DNA of 64,000 nt from Gaiellaceae bacterium (GTDB lineage Bacteria > Actinomycetota > Thermoleophilia > Gaiellales > Gaiellaceae), in NCBI GenBank assembly GCA_026002995.1, contig BPGK01000001.1:2108001-2172000 (forward strand), written 5' to 3'. The notes under the pieces were generated by a model. That model was not told the DNA's origin and searched no databases. It worked only from the letters and a program-made list of their open reading frames with translations. The position numbers and the translations under genes are program-made. The stretch's first letter is position 1. Each line of letters starts with the position of its first letter. Positions 7,394 to 38,279 of this stretch are shown piece by piece.

Positions 7394-8437
7394 GTGACCG
7401 GCTCCGTCGGGCAGGCCCCGGTCATCCGGGCGCACGGCGTCTGGAAGGTCTTCGGTCCGCGCGCCGAGCGCATCGTCGGGACGCCCGAGGCTGACCTCCC
7501 ACGGCGCGAGCTGCTCGAGAGAACCGGGTGCGTGGCCGCCGTGCGCGACGTCTCCTTCGAGGTCTGGCCGGGAGAGGTGTTCGTCGTCATGGGCCTCTCG
7601 GGGTCGGGAAAGTCGACACTCGTGCGCACGCTCATCCGCCTCATCGAACCGACCGCGGGCGAGATCGAGATCGCCGGTCGCGACGTGACAAGGGCGAGTC
7701 GCAGCGAGCTGCGAGCGCTTCGCCGGCACGAGGTGGGGATGGTCTTCCAGCACTTCGGACTCCTCGCCCACCGTCGCGTCCTCGACAACGTCGCCTTCGG
7801 TCTCGAGGTTCGGGGAGTGCCGAAGGCGGAGCGCCAGGCCCGCGCCCGCGAGGTGTTGCGCCTCGTCGGACTGGAGGACGTGGCCGACCGCTTCCCCGAC
7901 CAGCTGTCTGGGGGCATGCAGCAGCGCGTCGGCGTCGCACGCGCGTTCGCAGTCGACCCGGCAGTCCTCCTCTACGACGAGCCCTTCAGCGCGCTCGACC
8001 CGCTCATCCGCCGCGACATGCAGGACGAGATCTGTCGTCTCCAGGCGGAGACGGGAAAGACGATGATCTTCATCACGCACGACCTGTCCGAGGCGCTCAG
8101 GCTCGGCGATCGGATCGCAATCATGCGAGACGGGAGCATCGTCCAACTCGGGACGCCCGAGGAGCTCGTCGGGTCGCCGGCAGACGCGTACGTCGCGAAC
8201 TTCACCCGCGACATCCCGCGCAGCCACGTGCTCACGTTGCGCTGGGTGATGCGGAAGCCGGCTCCAGGCGAGGAGCTCGACGGGCCACGACTGGACGTGC
8301 GCACGACCGTCCGCGACGCCGTTCCGGTGCTCGCCGCGAGCGAGAAGCCCGTGTGCGCCGTGGAGGACGGGCGCGTCGTAGGGCTCGTGGAGCGGGACGC
8401 CGTGCTGCGCGCGATCGCGAGCGGGGACGAGCGGTAA
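7394..8437 (+). CDS. proV: Glycine betaine/proline betaine ABC transporter ATP-binding protein (ProV/OpuAA-like)
   Basis: 347 residues, GTG start. Walker [10 protein letters not shown] (67-75), Q-loop VFQHFGLL, signature [14 protein letters not shown] (about 172), Walker [13 protein letters not shown] and switch FITHDL. The N-terminal extension before the core and the [11 protein letters not shown] linker after it are typical of the quaternary-amine uptake class; the C-terminal 45 residues look like a single degenerate CBS unit ([22 protein letters not shown]) where ProV/OpuAA usually have two. It energises import of betaine-type compounds. The stop is 2 nt before the permease ATG. Import of glycine betaine fits every downstream operon. 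Confidence 0.92.
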
Positions 8438-8439
8438 CG

Positions 8440-10443
8440 ATGGCGTCGGTCGCAGCCGACACGGTCTCCACCCGACCCCTCTCCCACCGCCCGTGGTGGC
8501 GCGGTCGCCTCGTGGGGGTGGGAGTGGTCGTCGCGCTCATGGTCGCGAGCTACCGCCTCGGAGTGACGACGGACGCGAACGGCGTTGCCGTCGCCCGCTT
8601 CCCGTGGCCGGAGGAGCTCGTCTGGAACGCCTTCCCCGGCCACCTGGACGCCTTCCAGACGTGGCTCCTCGACCAGCGCAACGCCGAGGATCCAAGCATC
8701 GTCTTCGCCCTCTTCAACGGATTCGCGACACTCGTCGACAGCCTCGTCTCGTGGCTCGACCGCTTCCTCCTCTGGCTCACCTGGGTGGGAACGGCTGCGA
8801 CGGCAACGCTCGTCGCACTCCGCTTCGGAGGGGTGCGGGCGGCAGCCTGGGTCGCCGGAGCGCTTGCCGCCTTCGCCCTCATGGGTCTGTGGGAGGAGAG
8901 CATGCAGACGGTCGCGCTCATGCTCGCCGCCGTCGCCCTCTCGCTCGCCGTCGGCATCCCTGTCGGGATCGCCGCCGGGCTCTCGACCCGCGTGCAGAGA
9001 GCCGTCACTCCCGTCCTCGACACGATGCAGATCGTTCCCGCGTTCGCCTATCTCATGCCGGTCGTGATCCTCTTCTCGGTCGGACCGGGAGCGGCGGTCG
9101 TAGCGACGATGATCTACGCGATCCCTCCTGCCGTCCGCATCACGGCGCTCGGGATCCGCAGCGTCGCGCCGAACACGGTGGAGGCGGCGACGTCGCTCGG
9201 AGCGACCAGGCCTCAGATCCTCGCCAAGGTGCAGCTTCCGCTGGCGCGGCGCATGCTCATGCTCGGCGTCAATCAGACGATCCTGTTCGCGCTCTCCATG
9301 GTCGTCATCGCGGGACTCATCGGGGGAGGCGGCCTCGGCGACCTCGTCACGAGCGGCCTCTACTCGAGCCCGGCCATGGCGATCCTCGCAGGGGCGGCGA
9401 TCGTCATCGTGGCCATGGCCCTCGACCGCGCGACAGAGGCGACGGCGAGCCGGACCGACCCCACCCGTCGCCACCTCGACGACTCTGCGCGCCGAACGCT
9501 GCGCTTCTTGACGGTCGGCGCCGCAGCCGCGGCCGCCGCGTCCGTCGCTCTCGCGAAGGAGCTCGGCGCCCCCGCCGCTTACCCGGAGGGAAGAAGCGCG
9601 CAAGAGTGGCTCCTCGCCCGCATCCAGAGCGCGCTCGACTACGTCCAGGACCCTGCGCGCTTCCTCTTCGCGGTGACCGAGCCCCTGGGGAACGCCATCC
9701 TCGTGCACCTCGTCCAGCCGCTCCAGTCGTTCCTCATACTCGGGCCGTGGTTCACGACGCTCGCCGGGGTAACGGCGATCGCCCTCGTCGTGAGCGGCGT
9801 ACGGCCGGCTCTCACCACGCTCGCGATGTTCGTCGCGATCGGCGTCGTGGGCATGTGGGAGCCGGCCATGGACACGTTCTCCCAGGTGCTCGTCGCGACC
9901 GGGATCGCGGTCGCGATCGGAATCGCGCTCGGGATCGCGGCTTCCGAGAGCGCGCTCGTCTCCCGTGCGCTGCGCCCCGTCAACGACGTGCTCCAGACGC
10001 TCCCCCAGCTCGTGTACATCATCCCCTTCGTCTACCTCATGCCCGTGTCGATCGTCCCCGGCATCGTCGCCGGCGTCCTCTACGCCTTCCCCGTCGTCGT
10101 TCGACTCGTCGAGCGCGGCCTGCGAGACGTCGCTCCCGAAGCGGTCGAGGCGGCGTCGGCTTTCGGCGCCTCTCGCACACAGCTCATCGCGAAGGTGAAG
10201 GTCCCGCTCGCCGGGGACGCGATCATGCTCGGCATCAACCAGGGGATCATCATGGTGCTCGCCGTCGTCGTCATCGGCGGGCTCGTCGGGTCCGGCGGTC
10301 TCGGCTACCTCGTGACCGAGGGGCTCGTCCGTGGTCAGTTCGGGCAAGGGGTCGCAGCATCGCTCGCGATCCTCGCGCTCGGGATCGCACTCGACCGCGT
10401 CACCCAGGCAACTCGGCAGGCAGGAAAGGAGGTACTCGCGTGA
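8440..10443 (+). CDS. proW: Fused double-domain betaine ABC transporter permease (ProW-like tandem)
   Basis: 667 residues, about twice a normal ProW. Two complete permease modules occur in tandem: the first (about 20-330) with the EAA loop EAATSLGATRPQILAKVQLPLARRM and exit GLIGGGGLGDLV, the second (about 390-660) with EAASAFGASRTQLIAKVKVPLAG and GLVGSGGLGYLV. Each half has about six hydrophobic helices, and each is preceded by a periplasm-like amphipathic stretch (DAFQTWLLDQRN; EWLLARIQSALDYVQ). One polypeptide can therefore supply both membrane halves of the transporter. The ATG overlaps a good start region just after the ATPase gene; the stop is followed by proX in the same operon. Confidence 0.9.
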   Translation: MASVAADTVSTRPLSHRPWWRGRLVGVGVVVALMVASYRLGVTTDANGVAVARFPWPEELVWNAFPGHLDAFQTWLLDQRNAEDPSIVFALFNGFATLVDSLVSWLDRFLLWLTWVGTAATATLVALRFGGVRAAAWVAGALAAFALMGLWEESMQTVALMLAAVALSLAVGIPVGIAAGLSTRVQRAVTPVLDTMQIVPAFAYLMPVVILFSVGPGAAVVATMIYAIPPAVRITALGIRSVAPNTVEAATSLGATRPQILAKVQLPLARRMLMLGVNQTILFALSMVVIAGLIGGGGLGDLVTSGLYSSPAMAILAGAAIVIVAMALDRATEATASRTDPTRRHLDDSARRTLRFLTVGAAAAAAASVALAKELGAPAAYPEGRSAQEWLLARIQSALDYVQDPARFLFAVTEPLGNAILVHLVQPLQSFLILGPWFTTLAGVTAIALVVSGVRPALTTLAMFVAIGVVGMWEPAMDTFSQVLVATGIAVAIGIALGIAASESALVSRALRPVNDVLQTLPQLVYIIPFVYLMPVSIVPGIVAGVLYAFPVVVRLVERGLRDVAPEAVEAASAFGASRTQLIAKVKVPLAGDAIMLGINQGIIMVLAVVVIGGLVGSGGLGYLVTEGLVRGQFGQGVAASLAILALGIALDRVTQATRQAGKEVLA

Positions 10444-10481
10444 GCGAGAGCAGTTGTTGCGAGGAGAGAAGAGAAGGCTCC

Positions 10482-11459
10482 ATGCACAGGACGAGAAGGA
10501 AGAGCCCGATCGGGCACGTGCTCGGCCTGGCCGTGCTCGTGCTCGCAGTTGCGGGGCTCGTCTCATCCGGGTCCGCGCTCGGCGGCGCCCGGCAGGCGTG
10601 CGGCACCGTGACCTTGAACGAGCAGGCCTGGGCCGGCTCGACCGCGAACACGTACGTCGCGAAGTACGTGCTCGAGAAGCGGCTCGGTTGCACGGTGAAG
10701 ATCACGAAGATCGCCGAGATCCCCGTGTTCCAGGCGATGGCGGACGGGAAGGTCGACGCAGTCCTCGAGGACTGGCAGCACGTCGATCAGTACCAGCAGT
10801 TCGTGCGCAAGCAGAAGTCCGTCGTCCTCGCCGGCTCGAACGGGCTCATCGGGCACATCGGCTGGTTCATCCCGCGCTACCTCCTCAAGCAGTACCCGGA
10901 GTTCAAGACCTGGCGAGGCCTGAAGGGGAAGGAGCAGGTCTTCCGCTCGCCCGAGTCGGGAAGCCAGGGAATGTTCCTCGGCGGTGACCCCTCCTACGTC
11001 CAGAAAGACAAGGAGCTCATCCAACTTCTCGGTCTCAACTTCAAGCACGTAACGGTGGGCGCGGAGCCCGCCCAGGTCGCCCGCTTCATGCAGCTCATCA
11101 AGCAGCGCAAGCCGGTCATCTTCTACTGGTGGACGCCGCAGTACCTGAACGCGAGCCTCGACCTCGTCGAAGTCCAGCTCCCACCGCGGTTCAAGGGCTG
11201 CAAGGACGACGCGAGCTCGGGTGGCGACATCAAGCAGTACCGCTGTCGGTACGACGCGTACCCGCTCATGAAGCTCTTCAGCAAGAGGTTCGCGACGAGC
11301 GGCTCGCCGGCGGTCAAGGTGCTGCGCAACTTCCGCTGGTCGAACGCCGACCAAAACCTCGTCGCCAAGTGGATCGCTGGCGACAAGGTCAAGCCGGAGA
11401 AGGCAGCCGAGCGCTGGGTGAAGGCGAACGCGGCGAAGGTGAACGCCTGGCTGAAGTAG
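10482..11459 (+). CDS. proX: Glycine betaine ABC transporter substrate-binding protein (ProX/OpuAC-like)
   Basis: 325 residues with a Sec signal peptide: basic start MHRTRRK, hydrophobic LGLAVLVLAVAGLVSSG and likely cleavage around residue 35. The mature part is an OpuAC-type periplasmic binding domain (VTLNEQAWAGSTANTYV, DAVLEDWQHVDQYQQF, VIFYWWTPQYLN); the tryptophans in EDW, FYWW and similar could form the aromatic cage for a trimethylammonium group. It has no lipobox cysteine at the cleavage site, unusual for an actinobacterial binding protein, unless anchored otherwise. Ends 10 nt before a strong repeat hairpin that may terminate the operon. Substrate inferred as betaine or choline. Confidence 0.9.
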   Translation: MHRTRRKSPIGHVLGLAVLVLAVAGLVSSGSALGGARQACGTVTLNEQAWAGSTANTYVAKYVLEKRLGCTVKITKIAEIPVFQAMADGKVDAVLEDWQHVDQYQQFVRKQKSVVLAGSNGLIGHIGWFIPRYLLKQYPEFKTWRGLKGKEQVFRSPESGSQGMFLGGDPSYVQKDKELIQLLGLNFKHVTVGAEPAQVARFMQLIKQRKPVIFYWWTPQYLNASLDLVEVQLPPRFKGCKDDASSGGDIKQYRCRYDAYPLMKLFSKRFATSGSPAVKVLRNFRWSNADQNLVAKWIAGDKVKPEKAAERWVKANAAKVNAWLK

Positions 11460-11469
11460 CTGCAAACCG

Positions 11470-11541: not shown

Positions 11542-12216
11542 ATGAGCACCTCGCCCCTCCACGTCCACCAGCCCGAAGCGGCCGAGGCGCAGTCGCTGGG
11601 CGACCGCGCCTACTACCGCATCCGGGAGCTGATCGTCACGCTCGAGCTGCCCCCGGCCTCCGTCGTCACCGAGCGCGAGCTGCAGGAGCGGCTCGGACTC
11701 GGGCGGACACCCGTGCGAGAGGCGCTCCAACGCCTCGAGCGCGAGCGCCTGGTCGAGGTGTACCCGCGACGGGGGATCTTCGTCACACCCGTGAACGTCC
11801 TCGACCTCGGCGTCTTGTCCGAGGTCCGGGGGGTGCTCGAGAGCTTCGCCGCCCGACTGGCCGCAGAACGGTCGACGAGCAAGGAGGTCGAGGAGACGAC
11901 ACGCCTCGTCGCTCGCCTGGATGAGCTCTCCGAGCACGAAGGCGAGCGCCTCCTCATCGACCTGGACCAGCGTATCCACCGCCACATCTGGCGCTGCGCC
12001 CATAACCCGTTCCTCGCCGAGACGCTCGAGGGCTACTACGTCCTCACGCTCCGCATCTGGTTCCTCGTCCTCGACCGCGTGCGGCGCCTGGACGAGGCGG
12101 TGCGCGAGCACCGGGAGCTCCTGGAGGCGATCGTCGCAGGAGACGCTCCGCGGGCTGAGGAGGCGATGCGGCGGCACGTCGCGGGCTTCGAGCAGGCAAT
12201 CCGAACAGTCCTGTAA
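11542..12216 (+). CDS. GntR-family transcriptional regulator with FCD domain
   Basis: 224 residues. Winged helix-turn-helix about residues 15-85 (YYRIRELIVTLELPPASVVTERELQERLGLGRTPVREALQRLERERLVEV) followed by an all-helical FCD ligand domain with the metal-binding style DLDQRIHRHIWRCAHNPFL and HVAGFEQAI histidines. Such proteins sense small acids or amine-derived metabolites. Only 30 nt separate it from the dimethylglycine-dehydrogenase-like gene, in an AT-rich stretch (about 12217-12246) that looks like a promoter or operator, so it probably controls 12247-20174 and perhaps itself. Confidence 0.9.
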   Translation: MSTSPLHVHQPEAAEAQSLGDRAYYRIRELIVTLELPPASVVTERELQERLGLGRTPVREALQRLERERLVEVYPRRGIFVTPVNVLDLGVLSEVRGVLESFAARLAAERSTSKEVEETTRLVARLDELSEHEGERLLIDLDQRIHRHIWRCAHNPFLAETLEGYYVLTLRIWFLVLDRVRRLDEAVREHRELLEAIVAGDAPRAEEAMRRHVAGFEQAIRTVL

Positions 12217-12246: not shown

Positions 12247-14766
12247 ATGAGCTCTCTCCCCCCACGCGCCCGCGCAGTCGTCATCGGCGCCGGCATCGTC
12301 GGCTCGAGCGTCGCCTACCACCTGTGCCGCCTGGGCTGGGACGGAGTCGTGCTCCTCGACAAGGGCCCGCTCCCGAACCCTGGCGGCTCCACGGGACACG
12401 CTTCGAACTTCATCTTCCCCGTCGACCACTCGAAGGAGATGACGCAGCTCACGCTCGACAGCGTTCGCCAGTACGAGGAGCTCGGCGTGTTCACGCGGTC
12501 GGGAGGCATCGAGGTGGCGCGGACCGAGGAGCGGATGCAGGAGCTCACCCGCCGGATCGCCTCCGCCAAGGCTTGGGGGGTCGAGCCCGTCTCTCTGCTC
12601 AGCCCCGCCGAGGTGAAGGAGCTCGTGCCCTACCTCGACGAGCGCGTCATCCTGGGCGGCTTCTTCACGCCGGGGGTGGGCGTCGTCGACTCGCTCCAGG
12701 CGGGCACGCTCATGCGCGAGCGGATGGTCGCGGCGGGCGGCCTCGTGGTCTCCCCGCGGACGGAGGTGGTCGGAATCGAGGTCGAGCGGGGACGCATCCG
12801 CGCGGTGCGGACAACGGCCGGAGACGTCGAGACACCGGTGCTCGTCGTCGCCTGCGGCGTCTGGAGCCCCCGCCTTGCGCGCATGGCGGGAGCGTCGATT
12901 CCGCTCACACCCGCAGTCCACCAGATGATCGACATCGGCCCGGTGCCGCGCTTCGAGCGCTGCACGCGAGCGATCGAGTTCCCCATCGTGCGGGACATGG
13001 ATCGGAACATGTACGAGCGCCAGGACGGAACCTCCCTCGAGATCGGCTCCTACGCTCACCGCCCGATCCTCCACGATCCGGACGAGATCCCCTCGCTCGA
13101 AGAGGCCGCGCTCTCCCCGACGGAGCTCCCCTTCACCCAGGAGGACTTCGCGCCACAGCTCGAGGACGCCCTCGAGCTGATGCCGGAGATCGTGGGCGAC
13201 GAGTCGGTCGGCATCAAGTACGCGATCAACGGGCTCCTCTCGCTGACGCCGGACGGCATGCCCATCCTCGGCGAGACCCCCGAGGTACGAGGCCTGTGGT
13301 CGGCGGCAGCGGTGTGGGTGAAGGAGGGTCCCGGCGTCGGACGCGCCGTGGCCGAGTGGATGGTCGAGGGCGAGTCCGAGATCGACCTCCACTCCTCGGA
13401 CGTCTCCCGCTTCCATGAGCACCAGAAGACCCGCTCCCACGTCAAGGCACGGGCGGCCGAGGGCTTCAACAAGACGTACGGGATCGTCCACCCGTTCGAG
13501 CAGTGGTCGTCCAACCGCGAAGTGCGCCTCTCCCCTTTCTACGAGCGTGAGAGAGAGCTCGGAGCCGTCTTCTTCGAGGCAGCAGGCTGGGAGCGTCCAC
13601 AGTGGTACGAGTCGAACGCGTCGCTGCTCGAGGAGTACGGAGACCGAGTCACGAGGCGCGAGGCGGAATGGGACGCGCGCTGGTGGTCGCCGATCATCAA
13701 CGCCGAGCACCTCGCCATGCGTGACCGCGCGGCGATCTTCGACCTCTCCGCCTTCGCCATCTTCGACGTGACCGGCCCGGGCGCGCTCGACACGCTCCAG
13801 CAGGTCTCGCTACGGCAGATGGACGTGCCGCTCGGACGGGTCGTGTACACACCGTGGCTGACACCGAGCGGCGGTTTCCGCTCGGATCTCACCATCATGC
13901 GCCTGGGAGACGAGCACTTCCGCGTCGTCACGGGCGGGGCGCACGGGATGGCCGACCGCAAGTGGCTTTCCGACCACCTCCCCGAGAACGGCTCCGCACA
14001 GCTCGCCGACCTCACCTCCGCCTGGTGCACGCTCGGCCTCTGGGGGCCGCGGGCGCGCGACATCCTCGCGAGCCTCACGAGCGACGACGTCTCGCATGAG
14101 GGCTTCCCGTTCGCGACCTGCCGGACGATCGAGGTCGGTCCACTCCGCGTCCTCGCCTCGCGCATCTCGTACGTGGGCGACCTCGGCTGGGAGCTCTACG
14201 TCCCCATCGAGCAGGGAGCCCGGCTCTGGGATCTCGTCTGGGAGGCAGGACGCCCGCACGGGCTGGTCGCAGCCGGCATCGGCGTCTATGGCACCACCGG
14301 CCGGCTGGAAAAGTGCTACCGCGCGTACGGCGCCGAGCTCGAGAGCGAGTACACGGTGGTCGAGGCCGGGATGGCGCCCCCGCGGGTAAAGGACGAGGAC
14401 TTCGTCGGCAAGGAGGCGCACCTCCGCCACCGCGAGGAGGAGCCGGCCGCGATCCTGTGCACGCTGACCGTCGACGATCACGCCTCTGCGAGCGGGGTGC
14501 GGCGTTACCCGCTCGGGCGCGAGCCGATCCTGACGCGCGCCGGCGAACCGATCGTGGACGCCAAGGGACGCCGCTCGTACGTGACGAGCGCCGGCGCGGG
14601 CCCATCCGTCGGAAAGCACATCCTCATGGCCTACCTGCCGCCGGAGCAAGCCGTGGTCGGCCAGGAACTCGCCGTCGAGTACTTCGGCGAGCGCTACCCG
14701 GTTACGGTCGCAGTGGCCGGCTCGACGCCGCTCTTCGACCCCGAGAACAGTCGCATCCGCGCGTGA
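12247..14766 (+). CDS. Dimethylglycine dehydrogenase-like FAD oxidoreductase fused to GcvT
   Basis: 839 residues. N-terminal DAO-type flavin domain with VIGAGIVGSS (12-20) and a PGGSTGHASN motif whose His51 matches the covalent-FAD histidine of dimethylglycine oxidase/dehydrogenase; FAO_M middle about 390-440; aminomethyltransferase (GcvT) domain from about 450 (INAEHLAMRDRAAIFDLSAFAIFDVTGPGA, SYVGDLGWELYVP) and GcvT C-terminal domain from about 720. It would demethylate an N-methyl glycine, passing the C1 to tetrahydrofolate as methylene-H4folate. Followed with 4-nt overlap by etfB, so electrons go to ETF rather than oxygen. Dimethylglycine is likeliest; sarcosine possible. Confidence 0.87.
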   Translation: MSSLPPRARAVVIGAGIVGSSVAYHLCRLGWDGVVLLDKGPLPNPGGSTGHASNFIFPVDHSKEMTQLTLDSVRQYEELGVFTRSGGIEVARTEERMQELTRRIASAKAWGVEPVSLLSPAEVKELVPYLDERVILGGFFTPGVGVVDSLQAGTLMRERMVAAGGLVVSPRTEVVGIEVERGRIRAVRTTAGDVETPVLVVACGVWSPRLARMAGASIPLTPAVHQMIDIGPVPRFERCTRAIEFPIVRDMDRNMYERQDGTSLEIGSYAHRPILHDPDEIPSLEEAALSPTELPFTQEDFAPQLEDALELMPEIVGDESVGIKYAINGLLSLTPDGMPILGETPEVRGLWSAAAVWVKEGPGVGRAVAEWMVEGESEIDLHSSDVSRFHEHQKTRSHVKARAAEGFNKTYGIVHPFEQWSSNREVRLSPFYERERELGAVFFEAAGWERPQWYESNASLLEEYGDRVTRREAEWDARWWSPIINAEHLAMRDRAAIFDLSAFAIFDVTGPGALDTLQQVSLRQMDVPLGRVVYTPWLTPSGGFRSDLTIMRLGDEHFRVVTGGAHGMADRKWLSDHLPENGSAQLADLTSAWCTLGLWGPRARDILASLTSDDVSHEGFPFATCRTIEVGPLRVLASRISYVGDLGWELYVPIEQGARLWDLVWEAGRPHGLVAAGIGVYGTTGRLEKCYRAYGAELESEYTVVEAGMAPPRVKDEDFVGKEAHLRHREEEPAAILCTLTVDDHASASGVRRYPLGREPILTRAGEPIVDAKGRRSYVTSAGAGPSVGKHILMAYLPPEQAVVGQELAVEYFGERYPVTVAVAGSTPLFDPENSRIRA

Positions 14767-15530
14767 GGATCCTCGTCGCCGTCAAGCGGGTTCCGATGAC
14801 CGGAGGCACGATCGTCCTCACGCCGGACGCGCGGGCGATCGCGACGCAGCACCTCGGGTTCACCATCAGCCCCCACGAGGAGTGCGCCGTCGAGGAGGCG
14901 GTGCGGCTCGTCGAGCGCGAAGGCGGCGAGTCGGTCGTGCTCACGCTCGGCCCCCCGGAGGCCGAGGAGCAGCTCCGCGACGCAATGGCGGTCGGCATCG
15001 ACCGCGCGATTCACCTCGTGACCGACGAGGAGGAGTGGGATGGGCAAGCGACCGCAGGGGCGATCGTCGAGGCGGTGCGCGCCGAGGAGGCTTCATCCGG
15101 TCCCTTCGACCTCCTCCTCTTCGGCAACGAGTCGGCGGACGCAGGCGGATACCAAGTCGGTGTGCGCGTGGCGCACGCTCTCGGGCTGCCATGCGTGACC
15201 GGACTGAAAGGGATCGAGGTCAGAGGCCGCCTCGTCCGCTGCGAGCAGGAGGTGCCGGGCGGTCGCGACGTGTTCGAGGTGCCGCTCCCCGCTCTGCTCA
15301 CGGTCAAGGAGGGACTGAACCTCCCTCGCTACCCCTCGGTGCCTGGCCGCATGCGAGCTCGGCAGCGGCCGATCGCTCGCCATGAACCGCAGCGACCTCC
15401 TGCTCGGCTCGAGAAGCTCCGCTTCGTCGTTCCCGAGGGCGAGCGCAAGGAGGCGGAGATCCTCGGCCGCGGCCCGGAGGCCGCGCCGAAGGTGGTGGAA
15501 CTGCTCGATCAGCTGGGGCTGCTCCGATGA
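14763..15530 (+). CDS. etfB: Electron transfer flavoprotein beta subunit
   Basis: 255 residues from a GTG that overlaps the previous stop (GTGA). Starts RILVAVKRVP, the standard EtfB N-terminus, with ISPHEECAVEEAVRL, LLLFGNESADAGGYQVGVRVAHALGLPCVTG and the LTVKEGLNLPRYPS segment of the family. Binds AMP and forms the ETF heterodimer with the next gene product. It accepts electrons from the dehydrogenase encoded just upstream, and probably from other flavoproteins of the island. The stop overlaps the EtfA start. Confidence 0.93.
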   Translation: MRILVAVKRVPMTGGTIVLTPDARAIATQHLGFTISPHEECAVEEAVRLVEREGGESVVLTLGPPEAEEQLRDAMAVGIDRAIHLVTDEEEWDGQATAGAIVEAVRAEEASSGPFDLLLFGNESADAGGYQVGVRVAHALGLPCVTGLKGIEVRGRLVRCEQEVPGGRDVFEVPLPALLTVKEGLNLPRYPSVPGRMRARQRPIARHEPQRPPARLEKLRFVVPEGERKEAEILGRGPEAAPKVVELLDQLGLLR

Positions 15531-16510
15531 GCGTGCTCGTGCTCTGTGAGCGACGCTCGGACGGGATCGACGAGCCCTCGCTCCAGGCCCTCGCCTTCGC
15601 TCGCGCGCTCTACCCCGGCACGTCGGTGCACGCGCTCGCATGCGGGGTAGCGGCCGACGAGGTCGCCCCGCTGCTCGGCGCCTACGGAGTGGAGACGCTG
15701 CACGTAGCCGAGCACGAGGTCTTCGACACCTACGCCCCGCACGCAGTTGCCCGCGCAGCCGTGGAGCTCGCCGGTAGGCTCCGGCTGCACGCGCTCCTCG
15801 CCGGCGGTAGCGAGCAGGGCAACGAGGTGGTCGCGCGCGTCGGCGCGCTCCTCGACCTCCCCTTCGCCGCCAACTGCGTGGCGGCCGAGGCCGGCCCGCC
15901 CCTGCGAGTGACGCGGGTGCGCTGGGGTGGGAGCCTGCTCGAGGAGGCACTCCTGCACGCCGAGCTCGCTCTCCTCACCGTCGCCCCGCACGCGGTCGCC
16001 GCGCAGGAGACGAACGATGGCCCTGCCGCTGTCGAGCGCTTCGCGCCTGCGCTCGACGACGCCGACCTGCTCGTCCGCGTCCGCGAGCGAGCACGGGCGG
16101 CGGGCGGCGGAGTCACGCTCGCGGACGCGAAGGTGGTCGTCTCGGCAGGGCGCGGCGCCGGCTCCGCAGAGGGCTTCGCGCCGGTCGAGGAGCTCGCCGC
16201 CCTGCTCGGCGGCGCGGTCGGCTGCTCACGGGCAGTGACGATGGCGGGATGGCGCCCGCACACGGATCAGGTGGGCCAGACGGGGACGAAGATCGCGCCC
16301 GAGCTGTACATCGCGTGCGGGATCAGCGGCGCCACCCAGCACATGGCCGGCTGCAAGGGCGCGAAGCGCATCCTGGCCATCAACACCGACCCCGACGCGC
16401 CCATCCTGGAGAGCGCCGACTACGCGGTCATCGGCGACCTGCACGACGTCGTGCCTGCGATCGCGGCAGCGATCCGCGCTGCCCGAAACGAGAAGGCGGG
16501 TGCCGAATAG
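15527..16510 (+). CDS. etfA: Electron transfer flavoprotein alpha subunit
   Basis: 327 residues. N-terminal Rossmann-like half (VLVLCERRSDGIDEPSLQALAFA...) and the conserved C-terminal FAD-binding half: VVSAGRGAGSAEGFAPVEELAALLGGAVGCSR, then GQTGTKIAPELYIACGISGATQHMAG and NTDPDAPI. Partner of EtfB; overlaps it by 4 nt. The stop (TAG at 16508-16510) abuts the next gene, whose product is the likely membrane quinone-side acceptor, so the three genes make a dedicated electron path from methylamine oxidation to the respiratory chain. Confidence 0.94.
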   Translation: MSVLVLCERRSDGIDEPSLQALAFARALYPGTSVHALACGVAADEVAPLLGAYGVETLHVAEHEVFDTYAPHAVARAAVELAGRLRLHALLAGGSEQGNEVVARVGALLDLPFAANCVAAEAGPPLRVTRVRWGGSLLEEALLHAELALLTVAPHAVAAQETNDGPAAVERFAPALDDADLLVRVRERARAAGGGVTLADAKVVVSAGRGAGSAEGFAPVEELAALLGGAVGCSRAVTMAGWRPHTDQVGQTGTKIAPELYIACGISGATQHMAGCKGAKRILAINTDPDAPILESADYAVIGDLHDVVPAIAAAIRAARNEKAGAE

Positions 16511-29508: not shown

Positions 29509-29569
29509 ATCTATCGGTGTACGCCAATTTGTACGTGACATGTCGATGTTTCTGCGTCAGGATCGAGGC

Positions 29570-30832: not shown

Positions 30833-30886
30833 GGGAGCCCCCAGCGGGCCGGCTGCGGGCCCCGGCTCACCGCACCCGCGCTCGCG

Positions 30887-31789
30887 TCAGGCGCACGCCT
30901 GCCCGCGTCCGTGGCGGGCGCGCGTCACCGCCGCCCTCGCCTGCTCCGAGTGGAGGAAGGCGAGAAAGCGGCGGACAGCCGGTCGTGGCTCGATCCCCTC
31001 GGCGACGAGCGCAAACCAGGGTCGGGGGATGGGGGTTCCCGGCACCGCGAGGCGCACGAGCTCGCCCGACTCGAGCTCACGGGCGACCGCGAGCTCGGAC
31101 ACGAGGGCGATCCCGAGCCCGAGTCGGAGCGCCTCCCGTACCGCCCCGTTCGAGCCGAGCGTGAGCACCGCTCGGGGGACGATCCCGAGCTCGGCGAGGA
31201 ACCGCTCCGTCGTCGCACGCGTACCCGATCCCTCCTCTCGGAGCAGCCAGGTCGCCTGCGCGAGCTCGACCGGCTCCCGAGCGACGACGACGAGGTCGTT
31301 CTCGAGGAAGGGCTCTCCCGTGACCCCCCGTGCGATCGGTCTCCCACCGATCCCGAGGTCGGCCATACGCGAGGCGACCCGATCGAGCACCGTCTTGCGG
31401 TTGCCGATCTCGAGCAGGAGCTCCGTCTCCGGGTGGAGCCGCCGATACGCATCGATGAGCGGGGGCACGAGGTACTCGCCGGCCGTCGTCACCGCCACGA
31501 GACGGATGCGGTTCCGCTGCGGGCGCGCGGCCTCCTGCGCCGCCTGCCCGCCCTGGTCGAGGAGCCCGAGGACCTCGGCCGCGTACGGGAGGAACGCCTC
31601 GCCGGCGGGGGTGAGTCGGATTCCGCGCCCGCTCCGCTCGACGAGCTCGACCTCGAGCTCCTTCCCGAGCGCCGAGATGGCGGCCGACACGGATGGCTGG
31701 CTCACGTAGAGTCGCCGCGCCGCGAGGTGCACGCTGCCCGCCTCGGCCACGGCGAGAAACGCGCGGAGCTGGGTGATCGTCACCGCCAT
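30887..31789 (-). CDS. LysR-family regulator (CbbR/QscR-like) of the serine-cycle genes
   Basis: 300 residues starting MAVTITQLRAFLAVAEAGSVHLAARRLYVSQPSVSAAISALGKE, a standard LysR winged HTH, followed by the periplasmic-binding-like effector domain (NRIRLVAVTTAGEYLVPPLIDAYRRLHPETELLL). It is divergent from the serine-glyoxylate aminotransferase gene with only 38 nt between starts, so it very likely controls sga-mcl-ppc. LysR regulators of C1 or CO2 assimilation (QscR, CbbR) occupy the same position elsewhere; I infer a similar role. Confidence 0.88.
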   Translation of the reverse strand: MAVTITQLRAFLAVAEAGSVHLAARRLYVSQPSVSAAISALGKELEVELVERSGRGIRLTPAGEAFLPYAAEVLGLLDQGGQAAQEAARPQRNRIRLVAVTTAGEYLVPPLIDAYRRLHPETELLLEIGNRKTVLDRVASRMADLGIGGRPIARGVTGEPFLENDLVVVAREPVELAQATWLLREEGSGTRATTERFLAELGIVPRAVLTLGSNGAVREALRLGLGIALVSELAVARELESGELVRLAVPGTPIPRPWFALVAEGIEPRPAVRRFLAFLHSEQARAAVTRARHGRGQACA

Positions 31790-31827
31790 GTTCTTCGAGA
31801 TACCCCTATCACACGTGCGTATTTCGT

Positions 31828-33015
31828 ATGGCAGACGTCGATGTCTCGAGTATCCTCGCCCGCATGACGCAGGCCCCCTTCTCCCCACTCGAGCCCTCGG
31901 ATCGACTCCTCGTCGGCCCGGGGCCCTCCAACGTCCCGGAGTCCGTCCGGGAGGTCATGCAGCGCTCGCAGCTCGGTCACCTCGACCCGGAGTTCTGGGA
32001 CATCTGCAGCGAGGTCGCTGCCATGCTCGCGCAGGTCTACCGCCGTCCCTCGGGCCTCTCCTTCCCGCTGTCGGCGACCGGAACCTCGGGGATCGAGGCG
32101 GTGCTGTGCGGGCTCGTCGCTCCAGGCGAGACCGCGATCGTCGCAGTGGCCGGGTTCTTCGGCTCCCGGATCGCCGAGATCGCTCGTCGTCGGGGAGCGA
32201 AGGTGGTGGCGATCGAGGCACCGCTCGGGCAGGCGGTGCCGAACGAGGCGATCCTCGACGCGCTCGCGCGTCATCCGGAGGCGCGCCTCGTCGCCGTCGT
32301 CCATGCGGAGACCTCGACCGGCGTGCGCCATCCGCTGCGCGAGCTGGCGCAGGCGCTCGCGGGCAGTGACACCCTCCTCTTCGCGGACTGCGTCACCTCG
32401 CTCGCCGGGATCGAGCTCGAGCCGGAGGCGTGGGGCGTCGATGCATGCGCCTCCTGCACGCAGAAGTGCCTCGGCGCTCCCCCCGGGATGTCTCCCCTCT
32501 CCTTGTCGGAGCGCGCCCTCGAGCGCATCCGCGCTCGCGACGAGCCCGTTCCCCTCTCCCTCGATCTCGAGCTCGTCGGTCGCTACTGGTTCGAGCGCCC
32601 CGCTCCGTACCACCACACGGCGCCGATCCTCCACGTGTACGCGCTCCACGAGGCGCTCCGCCTCGTCCTCGAGGAAGGCCTCGAGGCGCGTTGGCAGCGG
32701 CACGAGGAGGTCGGCCGCTACCTCCAGGCGGAGCTCCGGGCACGCGGATTCGAGCTCCTCGCAGACGAGGCGGTTCAGCTCCCGCAGCTCAGCGCGGTGC
32801 GTGTGCCGGAGGGCATCGACGGCCCCGAGGTGCAGCGCCGACTCGCGCGCGAGCACGGGATCGAGGTCGGCGGCGGCCTCGGGCCGTCGGCGCCGCCGAT
32901 CTGGCGTATCGGCACGATGGGGGTGAACGCGACGGTCGAGGTCGCAGACCGCGTCCTGGAGGCGCTCGACGCCGTCGTCGCTCACCGCCGCCGCCTCGCA
33001 CCCGCGTCGCGCTAG
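31828..33015 (+). CDS. Serine-glyoxylate aminotransferase-like class-V PLP enzyme
   Basis: 395 residues (or 383 from ATG 31864). PSDRLLVGPGPSNVPESVREVM, LGHLDPEFWDI, LSATGTSGIEAVL, VHAETSTGVRHPL and the PLP-lysine region CASCTQKCLGAPPGMSPLS are diagnostic for the alanine/serine-glyoxylate aminotransferase family. It would convert serine plus glyoxylate to hydroxypyruvate plus glycine, the entry reaction of the serine cycle and the one that recycles glyoxylate from malyl-CoA cleavage. Followed 12 nt later by the malyl-CoA lyase gene. Confidence 0.88.
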   Translation: MADVDVSSILARMTQAPFSPLEPSDRLLVGPGPSNVPESVREVMQRSQLGHLDPEFWDICSEVAAMLAQVYRRPSGLSFPLSATGTSGIEAVLCGLVAPGETAIVAVAGFFGSRIAEIARRRGAKVVAIEAPLGQAVPNEAILDALARHPEARLVAVVHAETSTGVRHPLRELAQALAGSDTLLFADCVTSLAGIELEPEAWGVDACASCTQKCLGAPPGMSPLSLSERALERIRARDEPVPLSLDLELVGRYWFERPAPYHHTAPILHVYALHEALRLVLEEGLEARWQRHEEVGRYLQAELRARGFELLADEAVQLPQLSAVRVPEGIDGPEVQRRLAREHGIEVGGGLGPSAPPIWRIGTMGVNATVEVADRVLEALDAVVAHRRRLAPASR

Positions 33016-33027
33016 CCCGGAGAGCGG

Positions 33028-33999
33028 ATGGACCGCCGCCAGCGCCTCCATCGCTCGGAGCTCGCCGTCCCCGGATCGAGCCCCCGGATGCTCGAGAAGG
33101 CCCCCACCTGCGGTGCCGACGTCGTCTTCCTCGACCTCGAGGACGCCGTCGCGCCCGAGGAGAAAGATGCAGCGCGCGAGCAGGTCATCGAGGCGCTCCG
33201 CGAGCTCGACTGGTCGCGCTGCGCCGTCTCGGTGCGGATCAACGGGCTCGACACGCCCTGGTGCTACCGGGACATCGTCGACGTCGTGGAGCGCGCCGGG
33301 GATCGCCTCGATCTGCTCCTCGTGCCGAAGGTGAGCTGCGCCTCCGACCTCGAGTTCGTGGCCACGCTCCTCGCGCAGATCGAAGCCGCGCGAGGCCTGC
33401 GCCCGATCGGGCTCTCCGCCCTCGTGGAGACGGCCCGCGGCATGGCGAACGTCGAGGAGATCGCGCGCGCCTGTCCCGGACGGCTCGAGGCGCTCGTCTT
33501 CGGCGTCGCCGACTACGCAGCCTCGACCGGCGCGCGCACGACCTCCATCGGGGGACCGAGCCCGGACTACGCCGTCCTCACCGATGCGGACGCCGAGGGC
33601 GAGCGCGAGCGGCACTGGGGCGATCCCTGGCACTACCCGCTCTCCCGTCTCGTCGTCGCTGCCCGCGCGTACGACCTGCGGCCGATCGACGGGCCGTTCG
33701 GGGACATCGCAGATCACGCCGGATACGTCGCCTGCGCCAGGCGTGCGGCGGCCCTCGGGTGCGAGGGGAAGTGGGCGATCCACCCCTCGCAGGTCCCGCT
33801 CGCCAACGACGTCTTCACACCGACGGCAGCGGAGGTCGAGCGTGCGCAGCGGATCCTCGCCGCGCTCGAGGCGGCCAGGCGCGAGGGGCGCGGCGCGGCC
33901 TCCCTCGACGGCAAGCTCATCGACGCCGCCTCCATCCGCATGGCGGAGAACGTCGTCGCGAAGGCGAAGCGGGCGCACGAGGCCGTCACGGAGCCATGA
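33028..33999 (+). CDS. mcl: Malyl-CoA lyase-like HpcH/HpaI (CitE) aldolase
   Basis: 323 residues. Aldolase barrel with [33 protein letters not shown] (metal-binding Asp/Glu), [21 protein letters not shown], and a C-terminal [30 protein letters not shown] and [12 protein letters not shown] that closely follow malyl-CoA/beta-methylmalyl-CoA lyases. It splits malyl-CoA to acetyl-CoA and glyoxylate, supplying glyoxylate to the aminotransferase. The stop overlaps the PEP carboxylase ATG by 4 nt. Confidence 0.9.
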
Positions 34000-36674
34000 G
34001 CCCTCGCGCCCCGCTCGCGGTCACGCACGACCGGGGCGAGGAGCCGGACCTCCCGCCGCCGACCGAGCTCGAGCGCGACCTCGAGCGCGTTCGCACGCTC
34101 GTCTCCGAGATGCTCGAAGCCGCTGGCGCCGGGCTGCGAGCGGAGATCGAGCGGCTCCACGACCTCGCCGTCCGCCGCCGAGCCGGGGACGAGGCGGCGG
34201 CGCGCGCGCTCCAGGAGGTCGTCTCCTCGCTCCCTGTCGAGCGGCTCGCCGCCATCGCGCGCGCAGCCTCCATGGAGCTCCGCGTGGCGAACGTCTGCGA
34301 GGAGCTCGAGCGCGTTCGGCGACGGCGCCGCTACGACGCCGAGGGGGGTTCGGTGCAGCCCGAGTCCCTCGCCGAAGCAGCATCGCTCCTGCGTACCCTC
34401 GCACCGGAGCGCCGCGCCGCTCTGCTCGGGGCGCTCGAGTGCCGCCTCGTGCTCACGAGCCACCCGAGCGACGCCACCCGGCGAGCGGTGCTGTACAAGC
34501 TCAAGACGATCGAGACCGCCCTCGACGAGCTCGCGCGCCCCGATCTCGCGGCGTCGCGCAGGCGAGAGCTCCTCGGCGCAGTTCGTGAGGCGCTCGCCGC
34601 CTGGTGGCGGACGGACGAGGTGCGACGGGTGCGCCCCGACGTCGGCGAGGAGGTGCGGCGAACGCTCTTCGTCTTCGAGTCCGTGCTCTACGACGCCGCC
34701 CCCGAGGCCGTCCTCGAGCTAGAGCGCTGCTTCGGCGTCGAGCTCGACCGGACGCCGCTCACCTTCGGCAGCTGGTCGGGGTCGGACATGGACGGGAACC
34801 CCGCGGTGAGCGGCGCATCGATCCTCGCCACGGCCCGCGAGCAGCGGATCCTCGCGCTCCGGCTCCTGCACGACCGGGTCCGACAGCTGACCCGCGTGTA
34901 CACGCAGTCGGACTCCTCGCTCGAGCGAACGGGACCGATCCGCGCTCGACTCGACGCCTCCCTCGCCGAGCTCCCCGGCGCGCAGGAGCTCGGCGAGCGC
35001 TTCCGCCACGAGCCGCTGCGTCTGCTCCTCTACCTCGCCGCATACCGGCTCGCCCTCACGCTCGCGCGCGCGAGAGGAGACCCGGTGGAGGAGCCAGGGT
35101 ACGAGCGGCCGCAGGAGCTCGAGCACGACCTCGAGCTCGTGCGCAGCGCGTGTCGGGAGCACGCCGTTCCGACGCACTCCCTCCGTCGAGTCCTCTGGCA
35201 GACGCGGATCTTCGGCTTCCACCTCGCGAGCCTCGACGTCCGCGAGCACGTCCTCCCCATCCGTCGCACGGCCGCCGCCCTCCTCCCGAGCTACCGCGAC
35301 GCGACCGACGAGGGCGCGCGCCAGGCTGCGCTCGCCGCCGCTCTCGAGACCTGCGAGCAGGGCTCCTCCGGCGAGGCGCTCGCCCCGCCTGAAGCTCGGG
35401 TGGTGGACGCCTTCGCGGCCGTGTCCGAGCTCTCCCGCTGGGGGGAGCAGACGATCGGGACCGTCATTCTCTCGGGCGCCGAGCACCCGTCCGACGTCCT
35501 CTGCGCCCACTGGCTCGCCCGACGAGCCGGCGCCCTCGTGGCGATCGCCCCGCTCTTCGAGTTCGGCTCGGCGCTCGCGCGTGCCCCACAGACGATCGCG
35601 CACCTGCTCGAGTGCACGCCGTACCGTCGCGACCTCCGCTCGCTCGCGGACATCCAGGAGGCCATGCTCGGTCATTCCGACTCGGCGAAGGACATCGGCT
35701 TCACCGCAGCCCAGTGGGAGATCTACCGTGCTCAGCGCTCACTGCAAGCGCTAACGTCCGCGCACGGCATCGGCCTTCGCATCCATCACGGGCGTGGCGG
35801 TTCGCCCGCCCGTGGCGGCGCGCCCACCCACGCTGCCATCCTCGCCCAACCTCCGGGCGCCCCTCGTCGCCTGAAGCTCACCGAGCAGGGCGAGGTCGTC
35901 ACCGCGAAGTACTCGCACCCCGAGCTCGCGGTGCGAGCCCTCGAGCAGACCCTCTCCGCCCTCGCCCGCGTGGCCTCGGGTGAAGGCAGCCTGCCCCCCG
36001 CGCGCTTCGAGCGGGCGATGGATCGGATCGCAGCGCGTGCCCGCGCCGTCTACTGCGCGCTCGTCGAGGAGGAGCCAGACTTCCCTGCCTTCGTCCGAGA
36101 CTGCACGCCCCTCGACCTCATCGCCGAGCTCCCCATCGGGTCGCGGCCAACCTCCCGGCCCGAAGGCGACGTTGGCATCCGCTCTCTCCGCGCCATCCCA
36201 TGGGTGTTCGCCTGGACGCAGAACCGCGTTCTCATGCCCTCGTGGTACGGCGCAGGCTCCGGCCTCGAGGACGTCACGCTCGCTCTCGAACAGGAGATGT
36301 GGCGCGAATGGCCGTTCTTCCGAGCGCTCGTGTCCACCCTCGAGATCGCGCTCTTCAAGTCCGACCTCTCGACGGGAGCACGCTACCTCGACCTCGCCCG
36401 CGACCGCGCCCGAGCCGAGCGAGTGTGGGAGCTCTGCCGGAGAGAGCACGAGCGCACCGTGGATCGCGTGCTCGCGATCACCGATCAACGAACGCTGCTC
36501 GAGCGTCGCCCGGCGCTCCGGGCGCGCCTGCCGGTGCGGAACCCCTGGGTCGACCTCCTCAACGATCTCCAGCTCGAGACGCTCCGCCGCTACCGCGCGG
36601 GAGACGGAGGCGCGCGGGAGGCGGCGCTCGCGACCGTCACCGGGATCGCGGCCGGTGTCCGCAACACCGGCTAA
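33996..36674 (+). CDS. ppc: Phosphoenolpyruvate carboxylase
   Basis: 892 residues, full length. Catalytic landmarks are present though partly altered: [10 protein letters not shown] (usually TAHPT), [12 protein letters not shown] (usually GSWMGGDRDGNP), HSDSAKD, the [24 protein letters not shown] loop, LTEQGE and the C-terminal RNTG. It carboxylates PEP to oxaloacetate, the CO2-fixing step of the serine cycle. Start ATG at 33996 overlaps mcl. The Arg of the phosphate site (DRDGNP) is Met here, worth noting but probably compatible because many divergent PEPCs vary there. Ends before a palindrome and an AT-rich spacer. Confidence 0.93.
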
Positions 36675-36690
36675 GTCATAGAGAAATGAC
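36675..36690. promoter_or_regulatory. Inverted repeat at the head of the orf61-glyA unit
   Basis: GTCAT-AGAGAA-ATGAC, perfect 5-bp arms round 6 nt, right after the PEPC stop and in the only AT-rich part (36675-36720) of the 127-nt spacer. Candidate operator or promoter for the 61-aa gene and glyA. Confidence 0.4.
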
Positions 36691-36801
36691 AAATCAGAGT
36701 TGAGTAATCGTATGGCTGAAGCGAAGAGTCGGCGCTAGCGTCCGCGGTGCCGTGCCGGAGGTGACGAGATCGTCCAGCCTGCCCGTCTGAGCCCGTCGGA
36801 G

Positions 36802-36987
36802 GTGGGGCCCCTTGCGGCCCTCGGCCTACACCGTGACGAGATCGACGCGCTCGTTCGCGCCGGCGCCTCCGTCGAGGACGCGTGGTACCTCGTGCGCGCG
36901 ATCGGCTGCCCGCCGGCGCTCGCCGCAGAGATCCTCCTCTGGGCTGCTGAGATCGACGGAGCGGCGGAGAGCGGGGAGGCCCCGTGA
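36802..36987 (+). CDS. Small 61-aa protein upstream of glyA
   Basis: GTG start preceded by GGAGG (overlapping), the only usual start after the in-frame stop at 36736; the stop overlaps the glyA GTG by 4 nt, which argues it is translated. Sequence is mostly helical: [44 protein letters not shown], with no motif I recognise. Possibly a small regulator or a coupling peptide for SHMT. Confidence 0.6.
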
Positions 36988-38279
36988 GCGCCGCACCATC
37001 CCCGACCAGCCTCGACCCGCGCACCTGGCCCCTCGCCGACCTCGACCCGGTCGTAGCCGAGCTCCTGGAGGCGGAGCTCGAGCGGCAGCGTGGCCAGATC
37101 GAGCTCATTGCGTCCGAGAACTTCACCTGGCCGGCCGTGCTCGAGGCGCTCGGCTCGGTTCCGACGAACAAGTACGCCGAGGGTTACCCCGGCAAGCGCT
37201 ACTACGGCGGCTGCGAGGTCGTCGACCGCATCGAGACCCTCGCGATCGAGCGTGCGAAGGCGCTCTTCGGAGCGGAGCACGCGAACGTGCAGCCACACGC
37301 TGGCTCGCAGACGAACATGGCCGTCTACTTCGCATGCCTCGACCCCGGGGACACGATTCTCGCGATGCGGCTCGACCACGGCGGTCACCTCACCCACGGG
37401 CACCGGGTGAACTTCTCGGGCGGCCTGTACCGCGTCGTCTCCTACGGGGTCGCGCGCGAGAGCGGGCTCATCGACTTCGAGGAGGTGCGTCGGATCGCTC
37501 GGGCGGAGCGACCGAAGCTCATCGTCTGCGGCGCCTCCGCCTACCCGCGCGCGATCGAGGCGGAGCGGTTCCGGGAGATCGCCGACGAGGTGGGAGCGCT
37601 CCTCCTCTGCGACATGGCGCACGTCGCGGGCCTCGTCGCTTCCGGGCTTCATCCGAACCCCGTCCCGCACTGCGACTTCGTGACCTCGACCACCCACAAG
37701 ACGCTCGCCGGCCCGCGCGGCGGCTTCATCCTCTGTCGAGGCGAGCACGCAGACCGGATCGACCGGGCAGTGTTCCCGGGACTCCAGGGCGGCCCGCTCG
37801 AGCATGTCATCGCAGCCAAGGCCGTGTGCTTCGCGATCGCAGCCTCGGAGCAGTTCCGCGCATACCAGAGCCAGGTGCGAGCGAACGCAAGCGCCCTCGC
37901 CGGGGCGCTCCTCGCGGGCGGGATCGAGCTCTTGACCGGCGGGACCGACACGCACCTCGTCCAGATCGATCTCCGACGTTCGCAGTGGACGGGGAAGGCC
38001 GCCGAGGACCGGCTCCACGAGATCGGCATCACCGCGAACCGCAACACCGTTCCCTACGACGAGCGCCCGCCCACCGTGGCCTCGGGCGTTCGCCTCGGGA
38101 CGCCCGCGATCACGATGCGCGGGTTCGACGAGACGGACAGCCGCGAGGTGGGAAGCATCATCGTCGAGGCGCTCGACGGCTCGGTCTCGACGGAGACGCT
38201 CCGCGCGCGGGTGGCCTCCCTGTGCGACCGCCGACCGCTCTACCCCGGCTTCCGGGGGTTCACCACGTACCGCTCCTGA
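36984..38279 (+). CDS. glyA: Serine hydroxymethyltransferase
   Basis: 431 residues, GTG start overlapping orf61. [58 protein letters not shown] and the PLP-lysine [14 protein letters not shown] match SHMT throughout. It joins glycine with methylene-H4folate to serine, the point where C1 units from the GcvT-type and MetF-like enzymes enter the serine cycle. The glycine comes from sarcosine breakdown or the aminotransferase. Followed by 55 nt with a short hairpin GGGCGC-AG-GCGCCC (38293-38306), then the convergent kinase gene. Confidence 0.95.

What the first reader, a model, noticed from the sequence alone, without database searches (positions are those of the whole stretch)
7394..38279. One island joins betaine import, two demethylation chemistries and a serine cycle
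Seen: ProVWX-like importer, FAD-GcvT/ETF/DgcB oxidative demethylation, a corrinoid MttB-type operon with MetF, and hydroxypyruvate reductase, serine-glyoxylate aminotransferase, malyl-CoA lyase, PEPC and GlyA genes within 31 kb. Known: serine-cycle enzymes assimilate methylene-H4folate in proteobacterial methylotrophs. Inference: a high-GC actinobacterium uses quaternary amines as both carbon and C1 source through a serine cycle, an arrangement I do not know to be described.
Basis: partly seen in the sequence, partly recalled or inferred. Interest (0 to 1): 0.82.

Follow-up and report, generated by a model that had tools for sequence, protein, structure and literature searches.

The report
Serine cycle in amine-eating actinobacterium
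An uncultured-type actinobacterium carries, next to its genes for using choline, betaine and methylamines, what looks like a full set of genes to build cell material from the methyl groups, probably with an unusual enzyme at one step and a borrowed sugar-phosphate signal as its switch.

Summary
The lyase is the true malyl-CoA type. Genome-wide I found GlxK, isocitrate lyase, malate synthase, FolD and Fhs, but one SucCD pair and no malate thiokinase.

By the tree's labels, 50 of 62 pseudomonadotal lyase genes have mtkAB-like genes nearby. In this order a close CaiB occurs in 12 of 13 lyase-bearing genomes (window's included) and in none of 14 lyase-free ones tested; a fifteenth, fragmentary G037, has CaiB and no lyase found. 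I infer a malate CoA-transferase replacing malate thiokinase. RuBisCO-less phosphoribulokinase accompanies the lyase in 11 of 13 genomes, recalling ribulose-bisphosphate/QscR control in Methylorubrum.

In same-genus G003, MetF nearly abuts the gene that follows the 12.9-kb module here, so the module is a cassette in a methylated-amine locus that also encodes TMAO demethylase. The predicted conserved betaine-serine linkage was not seen in eight related loci read. CaiB's substrate, the signal, and flux are inferences; no activity is shown.

The parts
2042..6748 (+). Type III glutamine-synthetase-like gene and three glutamate-synthase-like genes (2042-3439, 3571-4506, 4494-5285, 5303-6748), resembling gmaS-mgsABC of the N-methylglutamate pathway
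   Evidence: family hits below cut-offs; the block recurs in the related genomes read; pathway name is recalled
7394..11459 (+). ProV, ProW with two transport-domain stretches, ProX: betaine/choline-type importer
11542..12216 (+). GntR/FCD regulator
12247..18489 (+). FAD-GcvT dimethylglycine-oxidase-like protein, EtfB, EtfA, DgcB-like Fe-S protein (start of the last uncertain)
18486..20174 (+). BetA choline dehydrogenase
   Evidence: TIGR01810 836.8 bits, cut-off 732.1
20143..20898 (-). IclR regulator
20952..27873 (+). Corrinoid methyltransfer operon: corrinoid protein, DUF1638, MeTr, RamA/AcsV-like activase, MttB without in-frame TAG, MetF-like
   Evidence: same gene order in G006 (L016)
28543..29508 (+). 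Glyoxylate/hydroxypyruvate reductase-like dehydrogenase
   Evidence: glyoxylate reductase 335.6 bits (cut-off 455)
29570..30832 (+). CaiB class III CoA-transferase; inferred succinyl-CoA:malate CoA-transferase
   Evidence: co-occurrence; neighbourhood
30887..31789 (-). CbbR-like LysR regulator, divergent from the aminotransferase gene
   Evidence: a CbbR or Rubisco-operon regulator is the best match in both; 67% identical to the LysR beside RuBisCO in G012
31828..33015 (+). Class V aminotransferase, inferred serine-glyoxylate aminotransferase
   Evidence: beside the lyase in L001-L004
33028..33999 (+). Malyl-CoA lyase
   Evidence: 5ugr 499 bits; tree
33996..36674 (+). Phosphoenolpyruvate carboxylase
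   Evidence: 654 bits over full length (cut-off 815)
36984..38279 (+). GlyA, second copy in the genome
   Evidence: 582 bits, cut-off 335; another copy at C1:1439179-1440468, 73% identical
38335..39372 (-). Phosphoribulokinase in a genome without RuBisCO; inferred source of a ribulose-bisphosphate signal
27834..40749 (.). Stretch missing in same-genus genome G003, where MetF and the acyl-CoA-dehydrogenase-like gene nearly abut
   Evidence: L124
42291..44609 (+). Trimethylamine N-oxide demethylase
   Evidence: NF053776 1207 bits, cut-off 1100
53132..54886 (-). Fhs formate-tetrahydrofolate ligase
   Evidence: 815.5 bits, cut-off 652
54962..59282 (-). SoxB-like and SoxA-like subunits (candidate N-methylglutamate dehydrogenase; start of SoxA uncertain)
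   Evidence: both below cut-offs; role inferred

Best explanation
A serine cycle has been inserted as a cassette into a methylated-amine locus of a probable Thermoleophilia actinobacterium. Choline and betaine are imported and demethylated (BetA; corrinoid MttB/MeTr/MetF; FAD-GcvT with ETF and DgcB), giving methylene-tetrahydrofolate and glycine; neighbouring genes feed in methyl groups from TMAO and methylamine. GlyA makes serine; the aminotransferase, hydroxypyruvate reductase and GlxK turn it into 2-phosphoglycerate; PEPC makes oxaloacetate, which becomes malate. A CaiB-type transferase moves CoA from succinyl-CoA (inferred donor) to malate, taking the place of ATP-dependent malate thiokinase; malyl-CoA lyase then yields acetyl-CoA and glyoxylate, and isocitrate lyase regenerates glyoxylate. 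Phosphoribulokinase makes ribulose-1,5-bisphosphate as a signal for the CbbR-like LysR regulator, as reported for QscR. Shown by sequence: gene families, the single SucCD pair, co-occurrences, the insertion. Inferred: substrates of CaiB, aminotransferase, HPR and MttB, the signal, flux direction, growth on betaine. Not searched: enolase, malate dehydrogenase, betaine aldehyde dehydrogenase.
For: Lyase matches solved malyl-CoA lyase and groups with lyases next to mtkAB. Genome has GlxK, FolD, AceB and one SucCD pair, ICL (21), Fhs (80), a second GlyA (76). Of 85 lyase genes, 54 have SucC/SucD-like genes within 6 kb and 7 a close CaiB (6 distinct contigs, window labelled by hand); those 7 form one clade at 99/95. 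Close CaiB in 12 of 13 lyase-bearing genomes of the order (64-70% in the 11 others, plus the window's own); among the 14 lyase-free ones the best listed is 43%; no MtkB match above 50% identity listed in any of 28. Described CaiB relatives include transferases for dicarboxylates: succinate-glutarate (244 bits, best) and succinyl-CoA:mesaconate, succinate-hydroxymethylglutarate. PRK in 11 of 13 lyase-bearing genomes, 9 of 9 RuBisCO-bearing ones and 1 of the other 107. G019 and G028 show no ICL (21) but Ccr over cut-off (34): either known glyoxylate route goes with the module.
Against: No activity, expression or growth data. In G019 and G028 CaiB stands away from the lyase, and their lyases fall outside the CaiB clade, with actinobacterial lyases four of which have mtkAB-like neighbours. 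G037 has CaiB with no lyase found. SucCD might activate malate itself. Formyl-CoA:oxalate transferases score nearly as well as dicarboxylate ones, and the top solved hit is an uncharacterised CaiB protein. The order genomes are related, so counts are not independent; searches scored at most 10, 5 and 2 candidates per genome. PEPC has no match at 1e-40 in G019 or G026, and the cluster copy in G026 is cut down to a 181-aa frame. Sixteen lyase-bearing genomes outside the order list no close CaiB. CaiB, HPR, aminotransferase, lyase, PEPC, corrinoid protein, MttB, activase and MetF-like protein all miss the curated cut-offs of their best specific models.
Confidence: 0.62

Rival explanations
1. The serine cycle is real but malate is activated by the housekeeping SucCD; CaiB acts on another acid, such as citramalate or oxalate.
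For: One SucCD pair exists; CaiB specificity cannot be read from sequence; formyl-CoA transferase models score only slightly lower (224 and 217 against 244 bits).
Against: Close CaiB tracks the lyase in 12 of 13 genomes and stands in its neighbourhood in six distinct contigs without mtkAB.
Confidence: 0.22
2. The genes serve glycine/glyoxylate (C2) salvage from betaine rather than net methyl-group assimilation; the cycle is not closed in practice.
For: Betaine demethylation yields glycine; ICL and AceB for glyoxylate are elsewhere in the genome; the betaine and serine parts are separable in relatives.
Against: PEPC and a second GlyA stand in the same cassette; the lyase groups with lyases beside mtkAB.
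Confidence: 0.12
3. Phosphoribulokinase and the LysR protein are relics of a lost Calvin cycle and have no part in the serine cycle.
For: Both are about 67% identical to the genes beside RuBisCO in G012; G000 has no RuBisCO match.
Against: PRK is kept in 11 of 13 lyase-bearing genomes over three families, none of which has RuBisCO, while it was found in 1 of 107 genomes with neither.
Confidence: 0.25

Closest known systems
Serine cycle of Methylorubrum/Methylobacterium and gammaproteobacterial methanotrophs
   Same: GlyA, aminotransferase, HPR, PEPC, malyl-CoA lyase; ICL or Ccr as partner; PRK plus LysR regulator (QscR as a ribulose-bisphosphate-responsive activator: passages of PMC8388818; PRK role: Ochsner 2017 cited in PMC9727194, passages; that paper itself is not held; absence of RuBisCO there is recalled)
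   Different: No mtkAB found, CaiB instead; GlxK and no GckA-type kinase; PRK closest to a cyanobacterial one (279 bits) and barely to 1a7j (23 bits); methyl supply from betaine, choline, TMAO and methylamine genes, no PQQ alcohol dehydrogenase match at 1e-30
[quoted passage not shown]
   Same: CoA-transferase feeding a malyl-CoA lyase (recalled; the activity is named in passages of PMC10521678)
   Different: One gene here, two in Chloroflexus (recalled); no sequence comparison with SmtAB was made
Corrinoid betaine demethylation (MtgB system)
   Same: MttB without in-frame TAG, corrinoid protein, MeTr; 402 bits to 2qne and to glycine betaine methyltransferase 9yce
   Different: Much closer to 4yyc, a putative trimethylamine methyltransferase (702 bits); substrate open
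N-methylglutamate pathway in actinobacteria (Mycobacterium; PMC5023230, passages)
   Same: gma-mgsABC-like genes and Sox-like dehydrogenase genes
   Different: Here beside serine-cycle genes; the main text of that paper has no occurrence of 'malyl'

Membership tests
Serine cycle | Malyl-CoA lyase | tested here: met
   (5ugr 499 bits)
Serine cycle | GlyA, aminotransferase, HPR, PEPC encoded | tested here: met
   only GlyA passes its cut-off; substrates of aminotransferase and HPR inferred
Serine cycle | Glycerate kinase | tested here: met
   GlxK-like at C1:438385-439275, two segments 42% and 44%; GckA family not found
Serine cycle | Malate thiokinase mtkAB | tested here: not met
   one SucCD pair only; CaiB proposed instead
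Serine cycle | Glyoxylate regeneration | tested here: met
   ICL at C1:1819792-1821006; Ccr not over cut-off in G000
Serine cycle | Enolase and malate dehydrogenase | not tested
   no search made
Serine cycle | Flux from C1 units to acetyl-CoA | not testable with these tools
   needs labelling
Class III CoA-transferase, malate-specific | CoA-transferase family III | tested here: met
   PF02515 375 bits
Class III CoA-transferase, malate-specific | Malate as CoA acceptor | not testable with these tools
   no NCBIfam model reached its cut-off
QscR/CbbR-PRK signalling | PRK present, RuBisCO absent | tested here: met
QscR/CbbR-PRK signalling | LysR of the CbbR group next to serine-cycle genes | tested here: met
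   best matches are CbbR, but NF045990 reaches only 177 of 450 bits
QscR/CbbR-PRK signalling | Conserved operator in the intergenic region | tested here: inconclusive
   T-N11-A matches found, no control for chance
Glycine betaine methyltransferase MtgB | Betaine-specific match | tested here: inconclusive
   betaine enzyme is not the best match; corrinoid NF047996 216 of 370 bits
Pyrrolysine trimethylamine methyltransferase MttB | TIGR02369 cut-off and in-frame TAG | tested here: not met
   255 of 525 bits, uninterrupted frame

The most novel reading that the evidence does not exclude
A natural serine cycle in Thermoleophilia that activates malate by CoA transfer from succinyl-CoA instead of ATP hydrolysis, linking the cycle directly to the TCA/glyoxylate succinate pool, is switched on by ribulose-1,5-bisphosphate from a RuBisCO-less phosphoribulokinase of another class than the proteobacterial one, and travels as a cassette that can land in amine-degradation loci.
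Probability: 0.42. Interest if true: 0.76.

Novelty: new variant of a known kind. Interest (0 to 1): 0.62.

Why it matters
It would extend the serine cycle to a largely uncultured actinobacterial class, give a natural CoA-transferase solution to malate activation of interest to synthetic methylotrophy, and suggest that ribulose-bisphosphate control of C1 assimilation exists beyond Proteobacteria. Each claim can be tested with single enzymes.

Tried and rejected
CitE instead of malyl-CoA lyase: NCBIfam put CitE first; rejected on the 5ugr match. PRK as the missing glycerate kinase: set aside because GlxK is present and PRK relatives sit beside RuBisCO. PRK as part of a Calvin cycle: no RuBisCO match in G000. 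Methanol as C1 source: no PQQ alcohol dehydrogenase match at 1e-30 in G000 (of the ten genomes only G019 has one, below cut-off). Ethylmalonyl-CoA pathway in G000: no Ccr over cut-off. Operator search: inconclusive.

Paper searches for an earlier description: 'serine cycle' with Thermoleophilia 0 papers; with 'malate CoA-transferase' 1, a computational pathway-design paper; with Actinobacteria, methylotroph and glycine betaine 3 (42); 55 papers hold three of methylotroph/Thermoleophilia/serine/malyl-CoA lyase, 15 listed, none of those with 'Thermoleophilia' (43); Gaiellales with methylamine 5 (44); 'serine cycle' with Actinobacteriota 4 (46); 19 hold three of the N-methylglutamate set (47); phosphoribulokinase 'without RuBisCO' actinobacteri 1 (48); phosphoribulokinase with QscR and 'serine cycle' 4 (56). 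Beyond listings I saw only passages of PMC10521678, PMC5023230, PMC13055281, PMC6908837, PMC8388818, PMC9727194 and PMC7669889 (in the last the match was the brand name qScript). Subscription papers are mostly not held, so absence from print is not shown.

Full report
1. The genome. The window is C1:2108001-2172000 of G000, a single contig of 2,622,036 bases, 97.3% complete. So the class Thermoleophilia is likely; an order name (Gaiellales) would be a guess.

2. Observation. The flanks hold TMAO demethylase (1207 bits, cut-off 1100), Fhs, ammonium-transporter-like and Sox-like genes below their NCBIfam cut-offs and two glutamate-synthase-like sets, so methyl supply looks broader than quaternary amines.

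3. Is it one unit? By blastn against same-genus genomes, G002, G004 and G010 match the window up to about 7210 and again from about 40750, with about 3.6, 10.5 and 4.2 kb of other DNA between. In G003, DNA homologous to 27070-27833 (MetF) is followed within about 90 bp by DNA homologous to 40750-42158. So 7.2-40.7 kb is a variable segment and the 12.9-kb serine module is absent from its place in G003. G006 has the MttB operon (L016). None of the ten other genomes of the genus gave the lyase at 1e-85 or lyase or CaiB at 1e-110; four are 89-97% complete, six only 53-77%.

4. The serine cycle. The lyase profile matches 5ugr (malyl-CoA/beta-methylmalyl-CoA lyase) at 499 bits. In G000 I found GlxK, FolD, AceB and one SucCD pair (a further 27% SucD-like stretch lies at C1:356483), ICL, a second GlyA and a second PEPC-like gene; no GckA family (33), no Ccr over cut-off (34), no RuBisCO (20), no PQQ alcohol dehydrogenase at 1e-30 (75). 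Enolase, malate dehydrogenase and betaine aldehyde dehydrogenase were not searched. G019 and G028 show no ICL but Ccr at 516 and 518 bits, the other known way of regenerating glyoxylate.

5. Malate activation. Of 85 lyase genes (80, four from L001-L004, and the window), 54 have a SucC- or SucD-like gene within 6 kb, 7 a close CaiB, 24 neither. By the tree's labels 50 of the 54 are among 62 pseudomonadotal rows and four are actinobacterial or unlabelled (L032, L076, L078, L084). The window was labelled by hand, L002 and L073 are one contig (so 6 distinct), and contig ends were not corrected for. The 7 form one clade (99/95; 100% of 200 bootstrap trees). The lyases of G019 and G028 fall outside it, with actinobacterial ones, and CaiB stands apart from the lyase in both. 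In 28 chosen genomes of the order, a close CaiB occurs in 12 of 13 lyase-bearing ones, the window's included (64-70% in the other 11; missing in G032, 72% complete) and in G037, a fragmentary genome of the same genus as most of them with no lyase found; in the 14 others the best listed at 1e-80 is 43%. No MtkB match above 50% identity was listed in any of the 28. Fisher p = 8e-6, overstated by relatedness. In 399 genomes of the class, 16 outside the order carry the lyase and none lists a close CaiB, with two candidates scored per genome; how those activate malate is open. The nearest described functions are transferases for dicarboxylates, with formyl-CoA:oxalate transferases close behind. I infer a malate CoA-transferase, at about 0.7.

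6. Regulation. Over 129 genomes of the order (at most five candidates scored each): 13 with the lyase, 9 with RuBisCO, none with both. PRK occurs in 11 of 13 (not G033 and G036, 75 and 78% complete), 9 of 9, and 1 of the remaining 107 (G037). Fisher p = 8e-13 for the RuBisCO-free genomes, again without correction for relatedness; the 13 fall in three families. Five RuBisCO genomes hold two PRKs. The window LysR is 67% identical to the LysR upstream of RuBisCO in G012 and its best matches in two libraries are CbbR or Rubisco-operon regulators. It is divergent from the aminotransferase gene in the window, from the lyase in L001, L002, L059, L073, L075 and L079, and from PRK in L007 (G019) and L008 (G028); no LysR match lies near the lyase in L003 or L004. 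PMC8388818 (passages) states that QscR of Methylorubrum extorquens is a ribulose-bisphosphate-responsive activator of serine-cycle genes, citing Ochsner 2017, which is not held. The parallel is strong but inferential.

7. Against. One Solirubrobacteraceae locus (L082) has a SoxA-like gene near the lyase, so linkage to amine genes may recur. PEPC is cut down in L001 and has no match at 1e-40 in G026 or G019. MttB substrate is open. Most of the specific family cut-offs are missed.

8. Verdict. A complete-looking serine-cycle cassette in an actinobacterium, a new variant of a known pathway. The added interest lies in the CoA-transferase step and the RuBisCO-less PRK. I found no earlier description in the open-access library under the searches.

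Noticed in passing
window 42291-44609: Trimethylamine N-oxide demethylase above its curated cut-off (1207 of 1100 bits), next to an acyl-CoA-dehydrogenase-like gene also in G002, G004 and G010.
   Followed up: partly
window 2042-6748 and 60472-63912: Two sets of glutamate-synthase-like genes with glutamine-synthetase-like genes at the two ends of the window, as in the N-methylglutamate pathway.
   Followed up: no
G095, G099, G104, G105, G106: Five RuBisCO-bearing genomes of one genus carry a second phosphoribulokinase away from RuBisCO, 59-71% identical to the G012 copy against 60-62% for the one beside RuBisCO (higher in 4 of 5).
   Followed up: no
L001 14637-15182: PEPC between lyase and aminotransferase reduced to a 181-aa open frame that by eye joins its two ends, while L079 keeps it nearly full length.
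   Followed up: partly
L001 5154-9605: Diol-dehydratase-like large subunit and reactivase-like gene (recognised by eye, no search) between phosphoribulokinase and the lyase cluster.
   Followed up: no
L007 8132-13209: In G019 an MttB-like gene (43%) lies about 2.6 kb from the phosphoribulokinase.
   Followed up: no
L082: SoxA-like gene (52%) close to the lyase and aminotransferase in a Solirubrobacteraceae MAG.
   Followed up: no
L069, L073: Records titled Bifidobacterium breve whose lyases group with those of Thermoleophilia or Solirubrobacterales; labels evidently wrong.
   Followed up: partly
window 8440-10443: ProW permease with two transport-domain stretches in one frame.
   Followed up: no
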